Positions 29,869-37,810 of a stretch of 49,556 nt of DNA are shown piece by piece. Under the pieces are notes generated by a model that was given only the letters and a program-made list of their open reading frames with translations, ran no database searches and was not told where the DNA came from. Source of the stretch: a bacterium. Lineage in GTDB: Bacteria > UBP4 > UBA4092 > JAOAEQ01. Made by a program: the position numbers and the translations under genes. How positions within the stretch are numbered: the first letter of the stretch is position 1; each line of letters begins with the position of its first letter. The stretch lies in the NCBI GenBank assembly GCA_026416715.1, contig JAOAEQ010000024.1:1-49556 (forward strand). The letters run 5' to 3'.

Positions 29869-30026
29869 ATGTTACAACAATATAATTAATCGTATAGGAT
29901 TATTTTCTCTGCGTATGTTGCGTCTGCTTTCCGTTCTCTGGAATTAGGTTTTTACTCTCTAATGTTTGCAGGGTTACGATATACATTTTATTTCGGATTT
30001 CGATATTCGGATTTGTATTGATTTCG

Positions 30027-30035
30027 TGGTATAAT
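30027..30035 (+). promoter_or_regulatory. recA promoter, extended -10
   Basis: TG-G-TATAAT at 30027-30035, a perfect extended -10. TTCGGA at 30006-30011 is a weak -35 with an 18-base spacer. The leader would be about 33 bases. I found no LexA box of the CTGT-N8-ACAG or GAAC-N4-GTTC kind. Confidence 0.6.
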
Positions 30036-30074
30036 TCGTTATTAAAAAATAAATTTTTTAAGGAGAAAATGGGT

Positions 30075-31121
30075 ATGGCACTGCAAGATGTAAAAGATAC
30101 GAAAGTTAAATCGAATCGCGAGAAAGCGCTCGAATTAGCGGTCTCCCAGATAGAAAAAGATTTCGGTAAAGGAGCGATTATGCGACTGGGAGAAGCGATG
30201 CCTCGACTTGAAGTCCCGGCGATTCCAACCGGGTCGTTATCACTCGATTACGCGCTCGGTATCGGCGGAGTCCCCCGCGGGCGAATCGTTGAAATTTTCG
30301 GTCCGGAATCTAGTGGGAAAACTACGCTCGCGTTACAAATCATTGCGCAGGCGCAAAAGCTTGGCGGTATCGCAGCGTTCGTTGATACCGAACATGCGCT
30401 CGATTCCGGTTATGCCAAACTATTAGGGGTAGATTTAGATAATTTATGGCTTTCGCAACCGGATTTTGGTGAACAAGCGCTGGAAATTGTTGAAACGCTG
30501 GTTCGGTCGAATGCGATTGATGTGATTGTCGTTGATTCGGTTGCGGCGTTAGTTCCGCGCGCTGAACTCGAAGGAGAAATGGGTGAATCGTTTATGGGCG
30601 TGCAAGCGCGGTTGATGAGTCAAGCGATGCGGAAACTCGCTGGAGCGATTAGTAAATCGAAAACCTGCGCGATATTTACGAACCAGATTCGGGAAAAAAT
30701 CGGCGTGATGTTCGGAAGTCCGGAAACCACGCCGGGCGGTCGCGCGTTAAAATTTTATGCTTCTGTGCGGATAGATATTCGGCGGATTGGCGGGATTAAA
30801 TCCGGGGAAGAGAATATCGGAAACGAAACCAAAGTTAAAATTGTTAAAAACAAACTCGCACCACCGTTCCGAGAAGCGAAATTCGATATTCTATTCGGGC
30901 AAGGAATATCCAAAGAAGCGGATTTACTAGAACTCGGGCTAACCCATAAACTGATTGAAAAAAGCGGTACCTGGTTCTCGTTCGGTTCTGAGCGACTCGG
31001 GCAAGGCCGAGAAACCGCAGTTAAATTCTTACGTGATAATCCGGATATTGCCGCGAAACTCGAATCCCAGCTTCGGGAAAAACTCGGGTTGAAACCGCCT
31101 ACCGCTAAAGTAGAAGAATAA
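30075..31121 (+). CDS. recA: Recombinase RecA
   Basis: RecA forms filaments on single-stranded DNA, promotes strand exchange and triggers the SOS response. From ATG 30075 the protein is 348 residues. Walker A GPESSGKT is at 76-83. [17 protein letters not shown], loop 1 [10 protein letters not shown], loop 2 [24 protein letters not shown] and the KLAPPFREA region are all intact. The start was chosen because AAGGAG lies nine bases upstream; ATG 30069 is too close, and the frame above it overlaps the promoter. The C-terminus is charged but short. A terminator separates it from recX. Confidence 0.98.
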
Positions 31122-31197: not shown

Positions 31198-31241
31198 CAT
31201 TGCAAAATTTAGAATACTAAATTTGCAATGGTTGTTTTTTT
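31198..31241 (+). terminator. Intrinsic terminator between recA and recX
   Basis: CATTGCAAAATTTAG (31198-31212) pairs with CTAAATTTGCAATG (31217-31230) with one bulged A and a 4-base loop. Seven T follow at 31235-31241. The recX ATG is at 31249, seven bases later. The hairpin probably limits how much recA transcription enters recX. Confidence 0.85.
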
Positions 31242-31248
31242 GCCAACC

Positions 31249-31938
31249 ATGCCTACCATAACGGCTATCTCACCGCAGAAGAAGCATCGGAACCGCTATT
31301 CGATTTTCGTTGATAATCAATTCTATGCCGGCGTTGATACTGCAGTGGTTGAAAATCTCGGTTTACGGAAAGGACTTGAAGTTGATACGAAAAAACTTGC
31401 TACTATCCTCGAGCAGGAAGAATATCAACGGGCGAAAAATTATCTATTCCGGCTTTTATCCCGAAGATTATATTCCTGTGCTGAAGTCAGAAAGAAACTC
31501 AACGAACATGGGTTCGGCCTTGAGATAAAAGACAAAAGAACGGTAGGACGAAAGGACGAAGGAACCGAAAAACAAGATACAAACCCAGATTTAATCGAAC
31601 AGCTGATTACTGAATTTACCGAGCGAGGCTGGCTTGATGATACCCAATTTGCGCTCCAATGGACTGAAAGCCGACTTCGGTTAAAACCGTGCGGGCTCGG
31701 ATTAATCCGACGCGAATTATTGCAGAAAGGGATTGAAAAAGAGTTGATTGATGAAGTACTGGCGAAATATACCGATTCGGAAGCAGAATTCGACCGAGCA
31801 CTCGCTGCATTGAACAAGAAAAAGAATTATACGAACGAACCAGACCCGATTAAACGCAAACGGAAAATCTATTCTTATCTCGCCCGACGCGGGTTTAGTT
31901 CGGACATAATAGAAAAACTGATGAATCAGCTTACATAA
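31249..31938 (+). CDS. recX: Regulatory protein RecX
   Basis: RecX binds RecA filaments and damps recombinase activity. From ATG 31249 the 229-residue protein begins MPTITAISPQKKHRNRYSIFVDNQF, matching the usual N-terminus of long RecX forms. Three-helix repeats follow: YLFRLLSRRLYSCAEVRKKL, then RGWLDDTQFALQWTESRL with GLGLIRRELLQKGI, then IYSYLARRGFSSDIIEKLM. A charged insert of about 25 residues (KDKRTVGRKDEGTEKQ) separates repeats one and two. ATG 31228 would be in the terminator stem and is rejected. There is no ribosome site, so coupling or weak translation is likely. Confidence 0.93.
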   Translation: MPTITAISPQKKHRNRYSIFVDNQFYAGVDTAVVENLGLRKGLEVDTKKLATILEQEEYQRAKNYLFRLLSRRLYSCAEVRKKLNEHGFGLEIKDKRTVGRKDEGTEKQDTNPDLIEQLITEFTERGWLDDTQFALQWTESRLRLKPCGLGLIRRELLQKGIEKELIDEVLAKYTDSEAEFDRALAALNKKKNYTNEPDPIKRKRKIYSYLARRGFSSDIIEKLMNQLT

Positions 31939-32120: not shown

Positions 32121-33620
32121 TTACTTCTGACTTTCTGATTTGTTAGAAATTAGATTATTTAGCGCAATTAAGATGCCCATCAGCCCTTCCGTATCCTGGT
32201 TACAATAGCGGGCTAGCGCAGTTCGAACGCGAGTTTGTTCCTCCGGAGTAACTTCGGTGTAGGTAACTCGCAAAAATTCACGACCCGCTTCTTCACCATC
32301 GCTAATTTCCATATCGTCATATCCTTTTCCGATAAGCGCTGGCATAACCGATTTTAAAGAAGCGCTACCATTTTGGTTCGGATGATAGTAAGCAAACGAC
32401 TGAAATGGTTTCAATAAATCTACAAACCGGGGAATAATACTTTCAACCCACGGTTGATATTCCGGGAACCGTTTCGCGCAATTGGTCAATATTTGGGATT
32501 CAAACGAAACGTTATAGACTAGAATCGAACCGTAGTCTCCGAGTTCTTGTTTCAGTCGAGCTAATATTTCCGGTCGTGGGTCAGCTCTTCCATCAGCGAG
32601 ATAACTGAAATGTTCCGGATTTCCTCCAGGATGACTAACCAGATGTAATGAATATTGAAATGGTATTTTTTCATAGGGACTAGAGTTATCATGTAACGGG
32701 ATTGCCGGATTATAGGTTTCAAAATCCAGGAAGTATAAGGGATAAACCAATTGGTCTATAAAATCCTGAATCGATTTCGGTTCGATATGCGGTTGGCCGG
32801 ATTTTTCGGATTTAACCTGTATCTGCTGATTATGATTAAGCGGAAAATCTGCCGGGATATCTTTTATTGCTAAAATGTTTCTATTAAACAGTTCTGGTAT
32901 CTTATTTCCGCCACGATATAAACAAAAAACATTTCTTTCCGGCAGGAACGACCAGCATCGTTCTTGCAATGGACATGGATTTGGTTTACTACACTGGCTA
33001 CCGATTTTGATATCAGGTTCCTGCGGTAAATGGATAATCGCAAGCATCATGGTAAGAGTATCGCTGATTTGGGGTAATATCGTATCGACTTTTTCGGTTA
33101 TCTCAACCTTTTTGAATAGTTTTTGCGGTTCAATTTCACCGTAACGCGTATAGCTAGTATCAATTAATAAGAGATAACATTGGTTGATGGTAATCCCAGC
33201 ATTCTGGCAGACATATTTCTGGAAAGCTACATCAACAATATGCTCATCTTTACAACTCGTACTCGATTTGACTTCAATAATATCCCATTGATCGCTTGAT
33301 ACCGGTTCTAGAATATCGACTCGCGCATAGCCATTCTGATATAAGAATCCCGCTTCAAATAACGGCTTACGCTCTTGCAATTTCTCTTGCGTTCGTTCGA
33401 CAACTTCTTCCAGTTGAATATCCCAACCAATCTCTATTCCATTTGGATAAAGTCGTTTCGCATATTCACCAACCAGATGCCCTTGGTCGAACAACGCTTG
33501 CGTCGCCGCATCGGTCTCCGGGAACACAGAGTTATCATTATAATAATACCAGAGCAGTTTATGGCATTGCATCCCGGCAAGATATTTGCTTTTTGAGATT
33601 GAAACATTAGTGTTGTTCAT
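32121..33620 (-). CDS. DUF2779 protein: Cas4-like PD-(D/E)XK nuclease plus DEDD exonuclease
   Basis: The 499-residue protein has an N-terminal PD-(D/E)XK domain with Asp102 (RVDIL) and Glu116-Val-Lys118 (DIIEVKSS). Four cysteines, Cys19 (MQCHKLLWY) and Cys210, Cys216 and Cys222, are placed like the iron-sulfur ligands of Cas4/AddB-type nucleases. The C-terminal half (about 290-499) looks like a DEDD 3'-5' exonuclease: FLDFETYNP with Asp299 and Glu301, YNVSFESQIL and NQDTEGLM. This is the DUF2779 layout. Its function has not been established to my knowledge, but nucleic-acid processing is expected. The start overlaps the upstream PD-(D/E)XK-type gene by 14 bases, so the two are translationally coupled. 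Confidence 0.87.
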   Translation of the reverse strand: MNNTNVSISKSKYLAGMQCHKLLWYYYNDNSVFPETDAATQALFDQGHLVGEYAKRLYPNGIEIGWDIQLEEVVERTQEKLQERKPLFEAGFLYQNGYARVDILEPVSSDQWDIIEVKSSTSCKDEHIVDVAFQKYVCQNAGITINQCYLLLIDTSYTRYGEIEPQKLFKKVEITEKVDTILPQISDTLTMMLAIIHLPQEPDIKIGSQCSKPNPCPLQERCWSFLPERNVFCLYRGGNKIPELFNRNILAIKDIPADFPLNHNQQIQVKSEKSGQPHIEPKSIQDFIDQLVYPLYFLDFETYNPAIPLHDNSSPYEKIPFQYSLHLVSHPGGNPEHFSYLADGRADPRPEILARLKQELGDYGSILVYNVSFESQILTNCAKRFPEYQPWVESIIPRFVDLLKPFQSFAYYHPNQNGSASLKSVMPALIGKGYDDMEISDGEEAGREFLRVTYTEVTPEEQTRVRTALARYCNQDTEGLMGILIALNNLISNKSESQK

Positions 33621-34599
33621 TTAAATACTTTTTTGCTTCTTCTAAAACCAACTCGGCCTTTTTAAATATTTCCTTAGTCCAATTCCAATCGATTTTATCT
33701 GTATTCTCACTTCGATAATCTTTGTCAAAAACAGCTACTGTCATCGTTTTTCCGAGACCAAATCGAGATGGCTTTTTTGCTCCAAGATTTAGTTTTATTG
33801 CTGTTTCTATTACTGCGGTAGAAAAATTATTCCTGAGTTTGGATTGCATATTTTTTTCGCTAACAAATATTTTCCAGCATAGCTTGTCGTGTTCTAATTG
33901 TAAGTATCCATAAAAATTTTTTTCAGCAATTTCTTTGGGAATTTTCCACCAAAAACCCATAAAACCACCGCTTCGGTTAGGAACATAATCCCAATCGCCT
34001 CCTAAATCAAATTTATCATTTAAAGTTGAAAAATAACCTATCCAATCATACCGATTCCATTCGGCTAATTTTTTGTCCGTAAATGCATTTGTATAATCTT
34101 CGATTTTGTTTAATAGTGTTCCGTATGCTGCAGCTAAATCTCTGAGATCATTATCAATCGAATTGGTTGTAAGCGAATTAACAGCTTCCCTTAGTTCTTG
34201 AAGGCCAATTGTTTCAATAGATTCCTTAACATTTTCTTTATCTTGTTTTTTGCATATCGATAATATCTTTTCTTTATCCCATTTTAAACGAGTAGTTCCT
34301 ATTAGAAAATATAATAACATTTCTTCATTTTTTAAATTTTTTATTTGTTTAATAATTTGGTTTTCTTCTAACGGTGCATCAATTTTTAATTCAATATGAA
34401 CATGCTTTTTGTTATCAACTATGATTGTAAAATCATATAACCGATTTTGTGTTTCTATATTTAGTTTTATATCATTACATTTTATACCTATATCAAGCTT
34501 ATCCAATAATTTTGTTTTTTCTAATAAACAAGCAAGAACAACTTGGTGCATCCTTTCAGAAGTAGCCGCCCAATCAAATAATAAATCAATTGCTGCCAT
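33607..34599 (-). CDS. PD-(D/E)XK nuclease-like protein, low-GC, possibly acquired
   Basis: The 330-residue protein has a compact nuclease core: YDFTIIVDNKKHVHIELKI, with Asp56 and Glu70-Leu-Lys72, then ENQIIKQIKNL with two glutamines four residues apart. This is the layout of PD-(D/E)XK enzymes. The rest is helical with aromatic patches (GFMGFWWKIPKE, GYLQLEHDKLCWKIFV), which may bind a target or partner. Lys, Asn and Ile codons are clearly more AT-rich than in neighbouring genes, suggesting recent transfer. A strong GGAGG site precedes ATG 34599. It overlaps the DUF2779 gene downstream. I do not recognise a named family. Confidence 0.7.
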   Translation of the reverse strand: MAAIDLLFDWAATSERMHQVVLACLLEKTKLLDKLDIGIKCNDIKLNIETQNRLYDFTIIVDNKKHVHIELKIDAPLEENQIIKQIKNLKNEEMLLYFLIGTTRLKWDKEKILSICKKQDKENVKESIETIGLQELREAVNSLTTNSIDNDLRDLAAAYGTLLNKIEDYTNAFTDKKLAEWNRYDWIGYFSTLNDKFDLGGDWDYVPNRSGGFMGFWWKIPKEIAEKNFYGYLQLEHDKLCWKIFVSEKNMQSKLRNNFSTAVIETAIKLNLGAKKPSRFGLGKTMTVAVFDKDYRSENTDKIDWNWTKEIFKKAELVLEEAKKYLNEQH

Positions 34600-34770
34600 A
34601 TTATACCTCCAATTTAATTGTGCAATTCGTTTTATTAGGCGTAATTCTATATTAAAATCTAAAATTTTACAATTTTTATGATTTTAATACATTTATTATT
34701 ATGCGGAATCAAAAATTTATTATTTCATCATTACAATCTTTCGCAATCCACATGTTGAATTTTCTGCGGC

Positions 34771-34800
34771 CTTTGCATCCTTTGCGTCTTTGCGGTTAGC
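34771..34800. repeat. Half copy of the GCGGTTA intergenic repeat
   Basis: CTTTGCATCC-TTTGCGTCTT-TGCGGTTAGC matches the right arm of the elements at 14415-14435 and 16481-16496. No matching left arm lies nearby. It abuts the stop of the AAA ATPase gene. Confidence 0.5.
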
Positions 34801-34802
34801 TT

Positions 34803-36185
34803 TTATAAAATATAGAATCCTAACGCTTTTTCCTTCTTTTTCTGTACCTGATTTAACGCTAACTCGAAATGCGTATCCGTTAATTTAACGATATTCGATT
34901 CATCATAATCTTTCTGTTCAATTGCGACTTTGGTCGCCAGGATAACCAGTTCATGCAGATGCGCACCGGTGAACCCTTCCGTCTTTTCCGCAATCCGGTC
35001 GATATTAATCCCATTTGCGGTTTTCCCACGTAACGCTTGCATAATGATTTGTTTCCGCAATTCAACGTCCGGGAGTTTGAACTCAAGCACGCGATCGAAT
35101 CGGCTCGGTCGGTCTTTCAACGCCGGTTCGATTACCTGTAAATCGTTAGTCGTTGCGATAACGATTACCCCTTCATTTTCAACGATTCCATCCATCTGGT
35201 TCAGGAGTTCTCCGAGAATCGGAGTGAAATGGATATGCCGGTCAATCGCGAAACAATCTAAATCTTCAATGAAAACGATACTCGGCTGCAGTTCTCGAGC
35301 AAACTGGAATAATTGCGTGACTGATTCCGCATTTTTGATTTTCGCTGCAGTAACCCAAATAAACGTACTATCTACCTGACTGGCAAGAACTTTCCCTACT
35401 AGCGTTTTCCCGACACCAGGTTTCCCATAGAAAATCAACCCGCGTTTTGTCGGGATTCGGTTCGCTTGATAGATAGGAATATACTTAATAAAATCAACCA
35501 CGTTCTCGATAATCTCTTGTTTAATTGCCGGGTCGAGAATAATATCATCCCAAGTATATTTTCGTTCGATAGATAAAAATTCTCCTTCAGCGGTTATCTT
35601 TTTTCGGCGATAATAATTATGGTCTTTCATCCATTGGATAAGCTGTTTCATAATCTGCTCCGCTAACCGAATCTGGTCAGGAAGCGCAAAGATTGATAGA
35701 ATTGGATTAATCGTATAATTATTAATAACATCCCAGCGTCTTTCTGTGATATATCGGGTTAAAATTCGATGTCCGTCGGCGGTTATCCAGCCATCAATCG
35801 CCATCTGGAGCGCTAACTGCGTTGTATTCCAATCTGTTTTGATGGCTATATACCCTTGCTCAATCGGGTCGGAACTAGGGTCGAATTCGATATGAAATGC
35901 ATGCGTATAATCCTTGAGCACGGATTCCAGCGCCGGCTGTATCATTCCCAAACGATACGGCTGTAAGGTTTCACGGATACAAATTACTTCTCCACGAGAA
36001 CGACCGAGAAATTCGTTCATGGTTTTGTATAACGTTTCCGTCTTGAACCGATCACGGGCGATTTGATTCGTAATAACGCCAAATTTTATCAATTCCCGAA
36101 TCCAGGCATGATTCCCCTGTGAATTCGATAGTTCTGCTGTATCAAATAGTCTCGTTTGGTCAATGATAGTTTCATGAACTGGCAT
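34803..36185 (-). CDS. AAA+ ATPase with a unique N-terminal domain
   Basis: From ATG 36185 the 460-residue protein has an N-terminal region of about 210 residues that I do not recognise. An AAA+ core follows: Walker A GKPGVGKT (254-261), Walker B IVFIEDLD (303-310), sensor-1 IATTND, arginine-finger region DRPSRFDR (358-365) and a C-terminal lid (EGFTGAHLHELV). Walker B reads E-D where most AAA+ proteins have D-E, as in some Bcs1-like members. AAGGAG lies nine bases before ATG 36185; ATG 36191 is two codons upstream. It stands between the WYL regulator and the nuclease pair on the same strand. Oligomeric remodelling activity is expected, with unknown substrate. Confidence 0.85.
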   Translation of the reverse strand: MPVHETIIDQTRLFDTAELSNSQGNHAWIRELIKFGVITNQIARDRFKTETLYKTMNEFLGRSRGEVICIRETLQPYRLGMIQPALESVLKDYTHAFHIEFDPSSDPIEQGYIAIKTDWNTTQLALQMAIDGWITADGHRILTRYITERRWDVINNYTINPILSIFALPDQIRLAEQIMKQLIQWMKDHNYYRRKKITAEGEFLSIERKYTWDDIILDPAIKQEIIENVVDFIKYIPIYQANRIPTKRGLIFYGKPGVGKTLVGKVLASQVDSTFIWVTAAKIKNAESVTQLFQFARELQPSIVFIEDLDCFAIDRHIHFTPILGELLNQMDGIVENEGVIVIATTNDLQVIEPALKDRPSRFDRVLEFKLPDVELRKQIIMQALRGKTANGINIDRIAEKTEGFTGAHLHELVILATKVAIEQKDYDESNIVKLTDTHFELALNQVQKKKEKALGFYIL

Positions 36186-36206
36186 AAACATATTCTCCTT
36201 TCTCGT

Positions 36207-36252
36207 TTCTTGCAATGGATGCGACCACTATTTTTGTCACTCATTGCAAGAA
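36207..36252 (-). promoter_or_regulatory. Inverted repeat in the AAA ATPase leader
   Basis: TTCTTGCAATG (36207-36217) and CATTGCAAGAA (36242-36252) are exact complements 24 bases apart, 22 bases upstream of ATG 36185. It is either a regulator site or an RNA stem in the leader. The WYL protein encoded upstream is a candidate ligand. Confidence 0.4.
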
Positions 36253-36492
36253 CAGATTTTATGTTCTGTAATTATTCTAAAATAGAGATACGACAAGATA
36301 GGTCGCACTGTAACAAATATTAAGTATAAAATAAATGGGAAAACGAAGGAGGGAAATAAGCGCCTAGTATTAAGGAAAAAACGCTGGGAATATACCGATT
36401 TTCAACTCAACATAGGTACCTAAGCTATATAACCGAGGTCAATTTTGCCTTTTCCATTTGACATTGATATGGTTATATAGGGTAACGATACT

Positions 36493-36535
36493 GGAGTATA
36501 ACCAGTGTGGGTCTAACCCACACTGGTTATACTCC
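36493..36535. repeat. 20-bp perfect hairpin with 3-base loop
   Basis: GGAGTATAACCAGTGTGGGT (36493-36512), loop CTA, then its exact reverse complement (36516-36535). No U-tract follows on the minus strand and only a poor one on the plus strand, so terminator function is doubtful. It has the same arm length as the hairpin at 10338-10378 but unrelated sequence. Confidence 0.8.
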
Positions 36536-36730
36536 ATTCTTTCTTGCTATTGGACGGAGATATTTTTGAGAATTTTAGTAATAAAGGTTACGCTTGGAGT
36601 AATTAACTTTTCTAAACCAATTGACTATCCATGGGTATCAATGAAAAATTTTTGGGGTTAAAATAATTCTGCCAATTGGGATTCAGCTCTTCCGCATCGA
36701 GATATAAGTTTAGTAAATTCAGGAGATGAA

Positions 36731-37708
36731 TTATTGTGAATACTTTTTAAGCGTGGTTTTAAGGGTAGTTATAATTTCATTGCGTAGTTGTTTCGGTTCG
36801 ATAACCTCGGCATTTTCACCGAAGGAAAGTATCCACCATTTAATTTCGTCCCAGCCGGAGGCGCATAACGTTAAAATCATATCGCCATTCGGTAATTCTT
36901 TGCAGGTATGGTTCATATGTTGACATCGCGACTTAACTACTGATACAACCGGTTGATTGAACCGGACAACAAAATTCTGCGGTTCTCCTCGCATAATCCC
37001 GAACGCATCCCGCATAAATTCGGAAACCTTAAACTCTTTTGGTTTCTTAAACGAGATATTTGTCGGTGTGATTTTTCTAATTCGCGATATGGTAAATAAT
37101 AATATTTCCCGATGTTTCGGCAGGAACGCAGCGAGATATAATCGGTCATAGGTTGGGAATATCGCATACGGTTCAATATGATAAGTTCGCCATTTTTCTT
37201 TACTTGCGGAATAATACTCTATCGTAACCGCTTTCTCATCCAGAATCGCTTGCTCTAGTTCCGGCATTACCTTCGCTAAATATGGATATTGTTCCTGCGC
37301 AACATATCGCGATTGAAATACTGTAGGGAATCGGTCGAAATAGCGTAACGTTTTTTCCGGCAGGAACGTTTCAATTTTTTTAACCAGTGTTTCTAAATCC
37401 TGTCTAAATAACGTGGTGCCGAACATCGCTAAAATATTCCGACTTAAATAGAGGCTTAATATTTCAGAAATCGTGAACGGCATCGGAATGTTCGACTTAT
37501 ATCCGTCAACAAATTTCCATCGTTTTTGCCCGTTAACCAGGTCATCGTATATCGGGAATCCGGCATCGCTCAAGGTCGCTAAATCGCGTTCGATGGTTCT
37601 GCGCGATACCCCGAATATTCTAACTAAATCCGGAATTGTTACCCCGTATTTGCTGTCTAAATATCGGATAATATTTAAATGACGGAGTAGTTGTTTATTC
37701 CGAGCCAT
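36731..37708 (-). CDS. WYL-domain transcriptional regulator
   Basis: From ATG 37708 the 325-residue protein has an N-terminal helix-turn-helix of the HTH_11/DeoR type (LNIIRYLDSKYGVTIPDLVRIFGVSRRTIERDLATLSDAGFPI). A WYL domain sits in the middle (VTIEYYSASKEKWRTYHIEPYAIFPTYDRLYLAAFL) and a WCX C-terminal extension follows (FVVRFNQPVVSVVKSRC onward). WYL domains sense nucleic-acid or nucleotide ligands, and such proteins often repress neighbouring defence genes. It is the first gene of a minus-strand series with the AAA ATPase and nuclease genes, and is divergent from the exopolysaccharide locus. The TTG at 37717 is a less likely start. Confidence 0.92.
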   Translation of the reverse strand: MARNKQLLRHLNIIRYLDSKYGVTIPDLVRIFGVSRRTIERDLATLSDAGFPIYDDLVNGQKRWKFVDGYKSNIPMPFTISEILSLYLSRNILAMFGTTLFRQDLETLVKKIETFLPEKTLRYFDRFPTVFQSRYVAQEQYPYLAKVMPELEQAILDEKAVTIEYYSASKEKWRTYHIEPYAIFPTYDRLYLAAFLPKHREILLFTISRIRKITPTNISFKKPKEFKVSEFMRDAFGIMRGEPQNFVVRFNQPVVSVVKSRCQHMNHTCKELPNGDMILTLCASGWDEIKWWILSFGENAEVIEPKQLRNEIITTLKTTLKKYSQ

Positions 37709-37810
37709 ATAAATCAATCTACCTTACTCGAATGATTGCGAATGCCTTGAATAACCCTTATATTATTTAATTCATCCTGCTTTTTCAATTCGCGTTACTC
37801 GCGTTATCTC

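What the first reader, a model, noticed from the sequence alone, without database searches (positions are those of the whole stretch)
32121..37708. Candidate defence or repair module: WYL regulator, AAA+ ATPase, PD-(D/E)XK protein and DUF2779 nuclease
Four consecutive minus-strand genes combine a WYL regulator of a type often linked to defence, a remodelling ATPase with an unknown N-terminal domain, a probable nuclease of different base composition and a two-nuclease DUF2779 protein. I do not know a described system with this set. The large gaps (203 and about 545 bases) mean that the regulator and ATPase may be independent of the nuclease pair.
Basis: inference. Interest (0 to 1): 0.65.

Follow-up and report, generated by a model that had tools for sequence, protein, structure and literature searches.

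The report
Two coupled nucleases beside unrelated genes
Two bacterial genes for different DNA-cutting enzymes overlap and may work together, perhaps against foreign DNA, but the two genes next to them that were read as part of the same system look like ordinary neighbours.

Summary
The four minus-strand genes are real and correctly named. They are probably not one module.

The WYL regulator pairs in a tree with its counterpart in the only same-class genome held (98/97), where it has housekeeping-type neighbours, outside the WYL clades linked to nucleases. The AAA+ ATPase is a loner: relatives match only its AAA domain. A copy of a dispersed genomic hairpin lies between the two.

What remains is a nuclease pair overlapping by 14 bp. 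One is an AT-rich, probably acquired, divergent PDDEXK_4 protein (GC3 3.6 SD below its neighbours; profile-profile E 7.5e-8). The other is a host-composition DUF2779 protein: a Cas4-like domain plus a DnaQ-like exonuclease (pLDDT 95.7).

Elsewhere DUF2779 mostly stands alone. But DUF2779, PDDEXK_4 and WYL genes lie together far more often than chance, and a tandem AAA+/WYL/nuclease set recurs in other genomes; one Sphingobium plasmid carries all four types.

Best reading: a locally assembled two-nuclease DNA-degrading unit, probably defensive, with WYL and AAA+ as bystanders. Untested by experiment.

The parts
32121..33620 (-). DUF2779 protein, 499 aa: Cas4-like PD-(D/E)XK domain with four conserved Cys, then a DnaQ/DEDD-like exonuclease domain
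   Evidence: PF11074 2e-40; invariant D102, E116, K118, D299, E301, D401, D476; AlphaFold2 pLDDT 95.7; Foldseek Cas4, AdnA, DnaQ, RNase T
33607..34599 (-). Divergent PDDEXK_4-type nuclease, 330 aa, AT-rich; motif D56...E71-x-K73; C-terminal domain of unknown function
   Evidence: PF14281 sub-threshold; hhalign E 7.5e-8 to clear PDDEXK_4 proteins; GC3 z -3.6; GGAGG 8 nt before the ATG
33607..33620 (-). 14-bp overlap of the two nuclease genes; DUF2779 has no strong Shine-Dalgarno of its own
   Evidence: ORF coordinates and start-site sequence
34803..36191 (-). Single-domain AAA+ ATPase with an N-terminal region (about 200 aa) without detected relatives; judged a bystander
   Evidence: PF00004 5e-25; relatives match only residues 202-462
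36492..36536 (.). Perfect 21-bp inverted repeat, 3-nt loop; one copy of a dispersed hairpin family, terminator-like
36731..37708 (-). HTH-WYL-WCX transcription regulator; judged a bystander
   Evidence: PF13280 1.2e-14, PF25583 6e-16; tree places it with the same-class orthologue

Best explanation
The locus is a pair of nucleases, probably translationally coupled, plus two unrelated neighbours. A foreign-looking, AT-rich PDDEXK_4-type gene lies directly upstream of a host-composition DUF2779 gene, and the two are made together. Shown: gene structure, overlap, composition, catalytic motifs, the DUF2779 fold. Inferred: the PDDEXK_4 protein cuts or nicks DNA, and the DUF2779 protein (Cas4-like nuclease and DnaQ-like 3'-5' exonuclease in one chain) degrades from the ends. 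The combined effect would be destruction of incoming or damaged DNA, more likely defence than routine repair. The WYL regulator and the AAA+ ATPase are bystanders.
For: 14-bp overlap. Catalytic residues kept in both proteins. DUF2779 model and fold matches. PDDEXK_4 directly upstream of DUF2779 on two kinds of Arcobacteraceae plasmid, those proteins matching PADLOC candidate PDC-S26. PDDEXK_4 enriched near genomic DUF2779 genes, 3 against 0.033 expected. DUF2779 beside Qat, type I restriction and other defence-type genes elsewhere. WYL grouped with its same-class orthologue, not with the nuclease-linked WYLs; the AAA+ unlike the recurring tandem AAA+.
Against: Tight spacing is common for DUF2779 behind arbitrary genes (56 of 118 within 60 bp on the same strand), so the overlap alone proves little. 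The close DUF2779 clade is mostly without PDDEXK_4 or WYL. The closest homologues of the window's PDDEXK protein have no DUF2779 beside them. In one A. butzleri plasmid the PDDEXK_4 gene is interrupted by a transposase gene while DUF2779 stays intact. No activity has been measured.
Confidence: 0.45

Rival explanations
1. DUF2779 is a self-standing accessory DNA-repair or genome-maintenance exonuclease, like solo Cas4, and the PDDEXK gene is a passing acquisition that happens to overlap its start. The two do not work together.
For: DUF2779 is spread over many phyla and DPANN archaea with no fixed partner; it occurs in 35 of 386 genomes; solo-cas4 genes show mainly vertical inheritance and a suggested repair or defence role (PMC5704561); the PDDEXK gene alone has foreign composition.
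Against: PDDEXK_4 and WYL genes are enriched near DUF2779 well above background, and the association has arisen repeatedly on the tree.
Confidence: 0.33
2. All four genes form one defence module: WYL senses and controls, AAA+ remodels or loads, the two nucleases destroy DNA. It would be a variant of the AAA+/WYL/nuclease sets found on plasmids.
For: A Sphingobium plasmid carries PDDEXK_4, tandem AAA+, WYL and DUF2779 within 5.6 kb; AAA+-DUF2779-WYL in Diaphorobacter, Rhodoferax, Azospirillum and G150; AAA+-WYL-PDDEXK_4 in G138. All four window genes share a strand.
Against: The window's WYL groups with a same-class orthologue in a housekeeping context; its AAA+ is not of the tandem family; the gaps are 203 and over 500 bp with a terminator-like dispersed hairpin between WYL and AAA+; AAA+ and PDDEXK differ in composition.
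Confidence: 0.15
3. The PDDEXK gene is a decaying or non-functional insert and nothing here is a system.
For: Low GC and an isolated sequence; sub-threshold Pfam match; the single-sequence fold was uninformative (pLDDT 40).
Against: Intact 330-codon frame with a clear Shine-Dalgarno, catalytic motif kept, C-terminal domain conserved with plasmid homologues at about 31%.
Confidence: 0.05

Closest known systems
DUF2779 family (PF11074; RNase H-like family F.17 of PMC3985635)
   Same: Same two-domain architecture, DUF83/Cas4-like plus presumed 3'-5' exonuclease
   Different: Nothing in the domain; the window adds a PDDEXK_4-type gene overlapping its start
Solo Cas4 (PMC5704561)
   Same: Cas4-like domain outside CRISPR, patchy in bacteria and present in DPANN archaea
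   Different: DUF2779 carries an additional DEDD exonuclease domain and just misses the Cas4 Pfam cut-off (21.8 against 22.7 bits)
PDC-S26 (PADLOC single-gene candidate; PDDEXK_4 proteins)
   Same: PDDEXK_4-type core; members stand directly upstream of DUF2779 on Arcobacteraceae plasmids
   Different: The window protein gives no PDC-S26 match and has a different C-terminal domain
Tandem AAA+/WYL/nuclease sets on plasmids (no name found)
   Same: Same four kinds of gene occur together
   Different: The window's AAA+ has one AAA domain and its WYL belongs to another clade
IetAS
   Same: AAA+ ATPase resembling IetA (81.5 bits)
   Different: Far below the IteA equivalog cut-off (77 against 510 bits) and no protease gene beside it

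Membership tests
DUF2779 (PF11074) | Passes the Pfam gathering score over the full domain | tested here: met
   138.3 against 23.3 bits, positions 1-126 of 126
DUF2779 (PF11074) | Catalytic residues of both nuclease domains present | tested here: met
   D102, E116, K118, D299, E301, D401, D476 invariant
Cas4 (PF01930) | Passes the Pfam cut-off | tested here: not met
   21.8 against 22.7 bits, although the fold matches Cas4
PDDEXK_4 (PF14281) | Passes the Pfam cut-off | tested here: not met
   17.6 against 22.3 bits
PDDEXK_4 (PF14281) | D...E-x-K core aligned by profile comparison | tested here: met
   hhalign probability 94.5%, E 7.5e-8
PDC-S26 (PADLOC) | Match to any PDC-S26 model | tested here: not met
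   No PDC-S26 match for the window protein at E up to 1
IetAS | IetA above its family cut-off, with an adjacent IetS protease | tested here: not met
   77 against 510 bits; no protease among the neighbouring genes
Tandem AAA+/WYL/nuclease set | AAA+ of the tandem family | tested here: not met
   One AAA domain; 21-28% identity over AAA domains only
Tandem AAA+/WYL/nuclease set | WYL of a nuclease-linked clade | tested here: not met
   Groups with the same-class orthologue, 98/97
Anti-phage defence system | Protects a host against phage or plasmid | not testable with these tools
   Needs phage-challenge experiments

The most novel reading that the evidence does not exclude
The pair is one form of an undescribed modular family of DNA-degrading defence systems in which DUF2779 and PDDEXK_4 nucleases are interchangeable or stacked effectors, elsewhere run by a tandem AAA+ ATPase and a WYL regulator; here they have been recombined with a different AAA+ and WYL.
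Probability: 0.2. Interest if true: 0.62.

Novelty: new variant of a known kind. Interest (0 to 1): 0.4.

Why it matters
DUF2779 has no known function although it joins two different nuclease folds in one chain and occurs in 35 of 386 genomes sampled. The enrichment of PDDEXK_4 and WYL genes near it, and the recurring tandem AAA+/WYL/nuclease sets, give a concrete, testable link to defence for a family that the defence library searched does not name: PADLOC reads it only as a weak Cas4. For the window itself the value is mostly in separating the likely pair from its bystanders.

Tried and rejected
1) One four-gene operon: rejected as most likely, on the WYL tree, the unrelated AAA+ family, the gaps and the composition. 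2) The 21-bp inverted repeat before the AAA+ gene as a WYL operator: rejected, because related hairpins (core AACCAGTGTG...CACACTGGTT) occur at six further places examined in the genome. 3) The CGCAAAGACGCAAAGG tract between the AAA+ and PD-(D/E)XK genes as a mobile-element repeat: only one copy in this genome. 4) Close homologues of the PDDEXK protein: none in 97 other genomes, none in the GTDB contigs or IMG/VR with the single sequence, none in IMG/VR with a three-sequence alignment, none in phages; only two plasmids. 5) PDDEXK structure: single-sequence AlphaFold2 failed (pLDDT 40) and was not used for a fold search. 6) Tight gene overlap as proof of function: rejected, since about half of the DUF2779 genes sit close behind an arbitrary gene. 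7) A 22-sequence DUF2779 alignment was too diverse for the contig scans; a closer set was used. 8) IetAS: rejected on score and missing protease.

Full report
Observation. The window holds, on the minus strand, a WYL regulator (36731-37717), an AAA+ ATPase (34803-36215), a PD-(D/E)XK-type protein (33607-34599) and a DUF2779 protein (32121-33620). Pfam confirms WYL, WCX, AAA and DUF2779 strongly; PDDEXK_4 is a sub-threshold match, 17.6 against 22.3 bits. Better starts are ATG 36191 for AAA+ and ATG 37708 for WYL. The flanks are recA (30018-31121) and a gene resembling recX (31228-31938) on one side, and a gene resembling a polysaccharide-export protein on the other; these three names come from reading the sequences, not from a search. 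The PD-(D/E)XK and DUF2779 genes overlap by 14 bp. Composition sets the PD-(D/E)XK gene apart (30.0% GC, GC3 z = -3.6); the other three match the window.

What DUF2779 is. In alignments of 22 and 56 sequences the residues D102, E116, K118 and Q134 (PD-(D/E)XK), C19, C210, C216 and C222 (a Cas4/AddB-like Fe-S pattern, from established knowledge of those families) and D299, E301, D401 and D476 (DEDD) are invariant or nearly so. The AlphaFold2 model is confident (pLDDT 95.7). Foldseek matches Cas4 of the type I-C Cas4-Cas1-Cas2 complex (E 2.3e-5), AdnA, SSO0001, a DnaQ domain, EXO5 and RNase T, each over one part of the protein. Published classification places the family among presumed 3'-5' exonucleases joined to DUF83 (PMC3985635).

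What the PD-(D/E)XK protein is. No close relative was found in 97 other genomes, GTDB contigs, IMG/VR or phages. Two Burkholderiaceae plasmid proteins share its C-terminal domain at about 31% and themselves pass the PDDEXK_4 cut-off. A profile of the three compared with ten clear PDDEXK_4 proteins gives 94.5% probability, E 7.5e-8, with the D...E-x-K block and the following Q aligned. It is therefore a divergent relative of PDDEXK_4, not a scored member.

Neighbourhoods of DUF2779. Among the 80 closest loci in named genomes and 17 from the sampled genomes, neighbours are mostly ordinary genes and no family recurs as a fixed partner. Plasmid copies differ. PDDEXK_4 stands directly upstream in Aliarcobacter butzleri (1 bp) and Arcobacter (61 bp) plasmids, and these proteins match PADLOC candidate PDC-S26. 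DUF2779 also follows a Qat system and a DUF6602 gene; a chromosomal copy follows a type I restriction subunit. Tandem AAA+ ATPases sit with DUF2779 and WYL in Diaphorobacter, Rhodoferax, Azospirillum and G150. A Sphingobium yanoikuyae plasmid carries PDDEXK_4, tandem AAA+, WYL and DUF2779 within 5.6 kb.

Reciprocal test. From the PDDEXK_4 side, 25 loci in 386 genomes were examined. One is a compact tandem AAA+-WYL-PDDEXK_4 set (L241); one is WYL, a DUF2779 N-terminal fragment and PDDEXK_4 (L244); seven carry a WYL gene. Two of the seven are from one genus, so six count as independent. Background densities are 142 WYL hits in 192 genomes (my sum of the match column, about 560 Mb, sizes estimated) and 25 PDDEXK_4 hits in 386 genomes (about 1,130 Mb, estimated). 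WYL near PDDEXK_4: 6 against 0.10 expected, p about 1e-9. WYL near genomic DUF2779, window excluded: 4 against 0.38, p 6.5e-4. PDDEXK_4 near genomic DUF2779: 3 against 0.033, p 6e-6. The neighbourhoods were scored with profiles built here and the background with Pfam models, so the comparison is approximate. The Poisson model ignores clustering into defence islands, so these values show co-location, not a working complex. L096 and L254 are the same locus and were counted once.

Is the window's set such a module? On a tree of 150 DUF2779 proteins the label 'associated' needs 16 changes, about as many as shuffled labels, so association arises again and again, and the window's gene sits among mostly unassociated ones. 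On a tree of 37 WYL proteins the window's WYL pairs with the same-class genome's WYL (98/97), which has housekeeping-type neighbours; many of the module-linked WYLs fall into separate supported clades. The window's AAA+ has one AAA domain and matches the tandem family at only 21-28% over those domains; in 191 other genomes its matches cover residues 202-462 only. A terminator-like dispersed hairpin lies between the WYL and AAA+ genes. WYL and AAA+ are therefore best read as bystanders, though this is not proven.

Mechanism. The best-supported reading is a coupled pair. The PDDEXK_4-type enzyme would make the break and the DUF2779 enzyme would degrade from the ends with its two nuclease domains. 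Shown here are gene order, overlap, catalytic residues, the DUF2779 fold and statistical co-location of the families. Inferred are activity, joint action and a defensive purpose. The chief rival is that DUF2779 acts alone, as solo Cas4 may (PMC5704561), and the PDDEXK gene is a passenger.

Novelty and limits. No paper found in the library describes a DUF2779 defence or repair system: six papers mention the domain, and the three that were opened give a classification, a transposon-mutant table and a plasmid gene list. PADLOC 2023 has no such system. Later or unheld work may describe one. No function has been measured, the host genome belongs to a thinly sampled class, and its organism was not identified.

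Noticed in passing
L241:4991-8788 (G138:C1); L044, L184, L185, L199, L200, L024: A recurring set of a tandem AAA+ ATPase, a WYL regulator and a nuclease (PDDEXK_4, DUF2779 or both), partly as tight operons, on plasmids and chromosomes; no name for it was found.
   Followed up: partly
window 36492-36536 and six other places in G000 (L191-L196): Dispersed intergenic hairpin family with core AACCAGTGTG...CACACTGGTT and outer arms that vary but stay largely complementary.
   Followed up: partly
L042:3961-7515 (Aliarcobacter cryaerophilus plasmid): DUF2779 directly follows the QatC and TatD-type genes of a Qat anti-phage system, between an SbcC-like ATPase and a dGTPase; the same plasmid slot holds other genes in related plasmids (L040, L041, L043, L181).
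   Followed up: partly
L179:3427-7479 against L039:4914-7479: The same A. butzleri plasmid locus in two strains: in one the PDDEXK_4 gene is split by a transposase gene while DUF2779 and WYL are unchanged.
   Followed up: no
L244:5418-6889 (G183): A DUF2779 N-terminal (Cas4-like) fragment without the exonuclease domain, between a WYL gene and a PDDEXK_4 gene.
   Followed up: no
L137:6469-9518 (IMG/VR contig): A 510-aa WYL protein 2 bp upstream of DUF2779 on a contig classed as viral; ten other viral contigs carry DUF2779.
   Followed up: no
G244:C1:535054-535485 and G371:C1:523728-524156: DUF2779 domains with one in-frame TGA in two 0.8-0.9 Mb genomes, suggesting that TGA is read as an amino acid there.
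   Followed up: no
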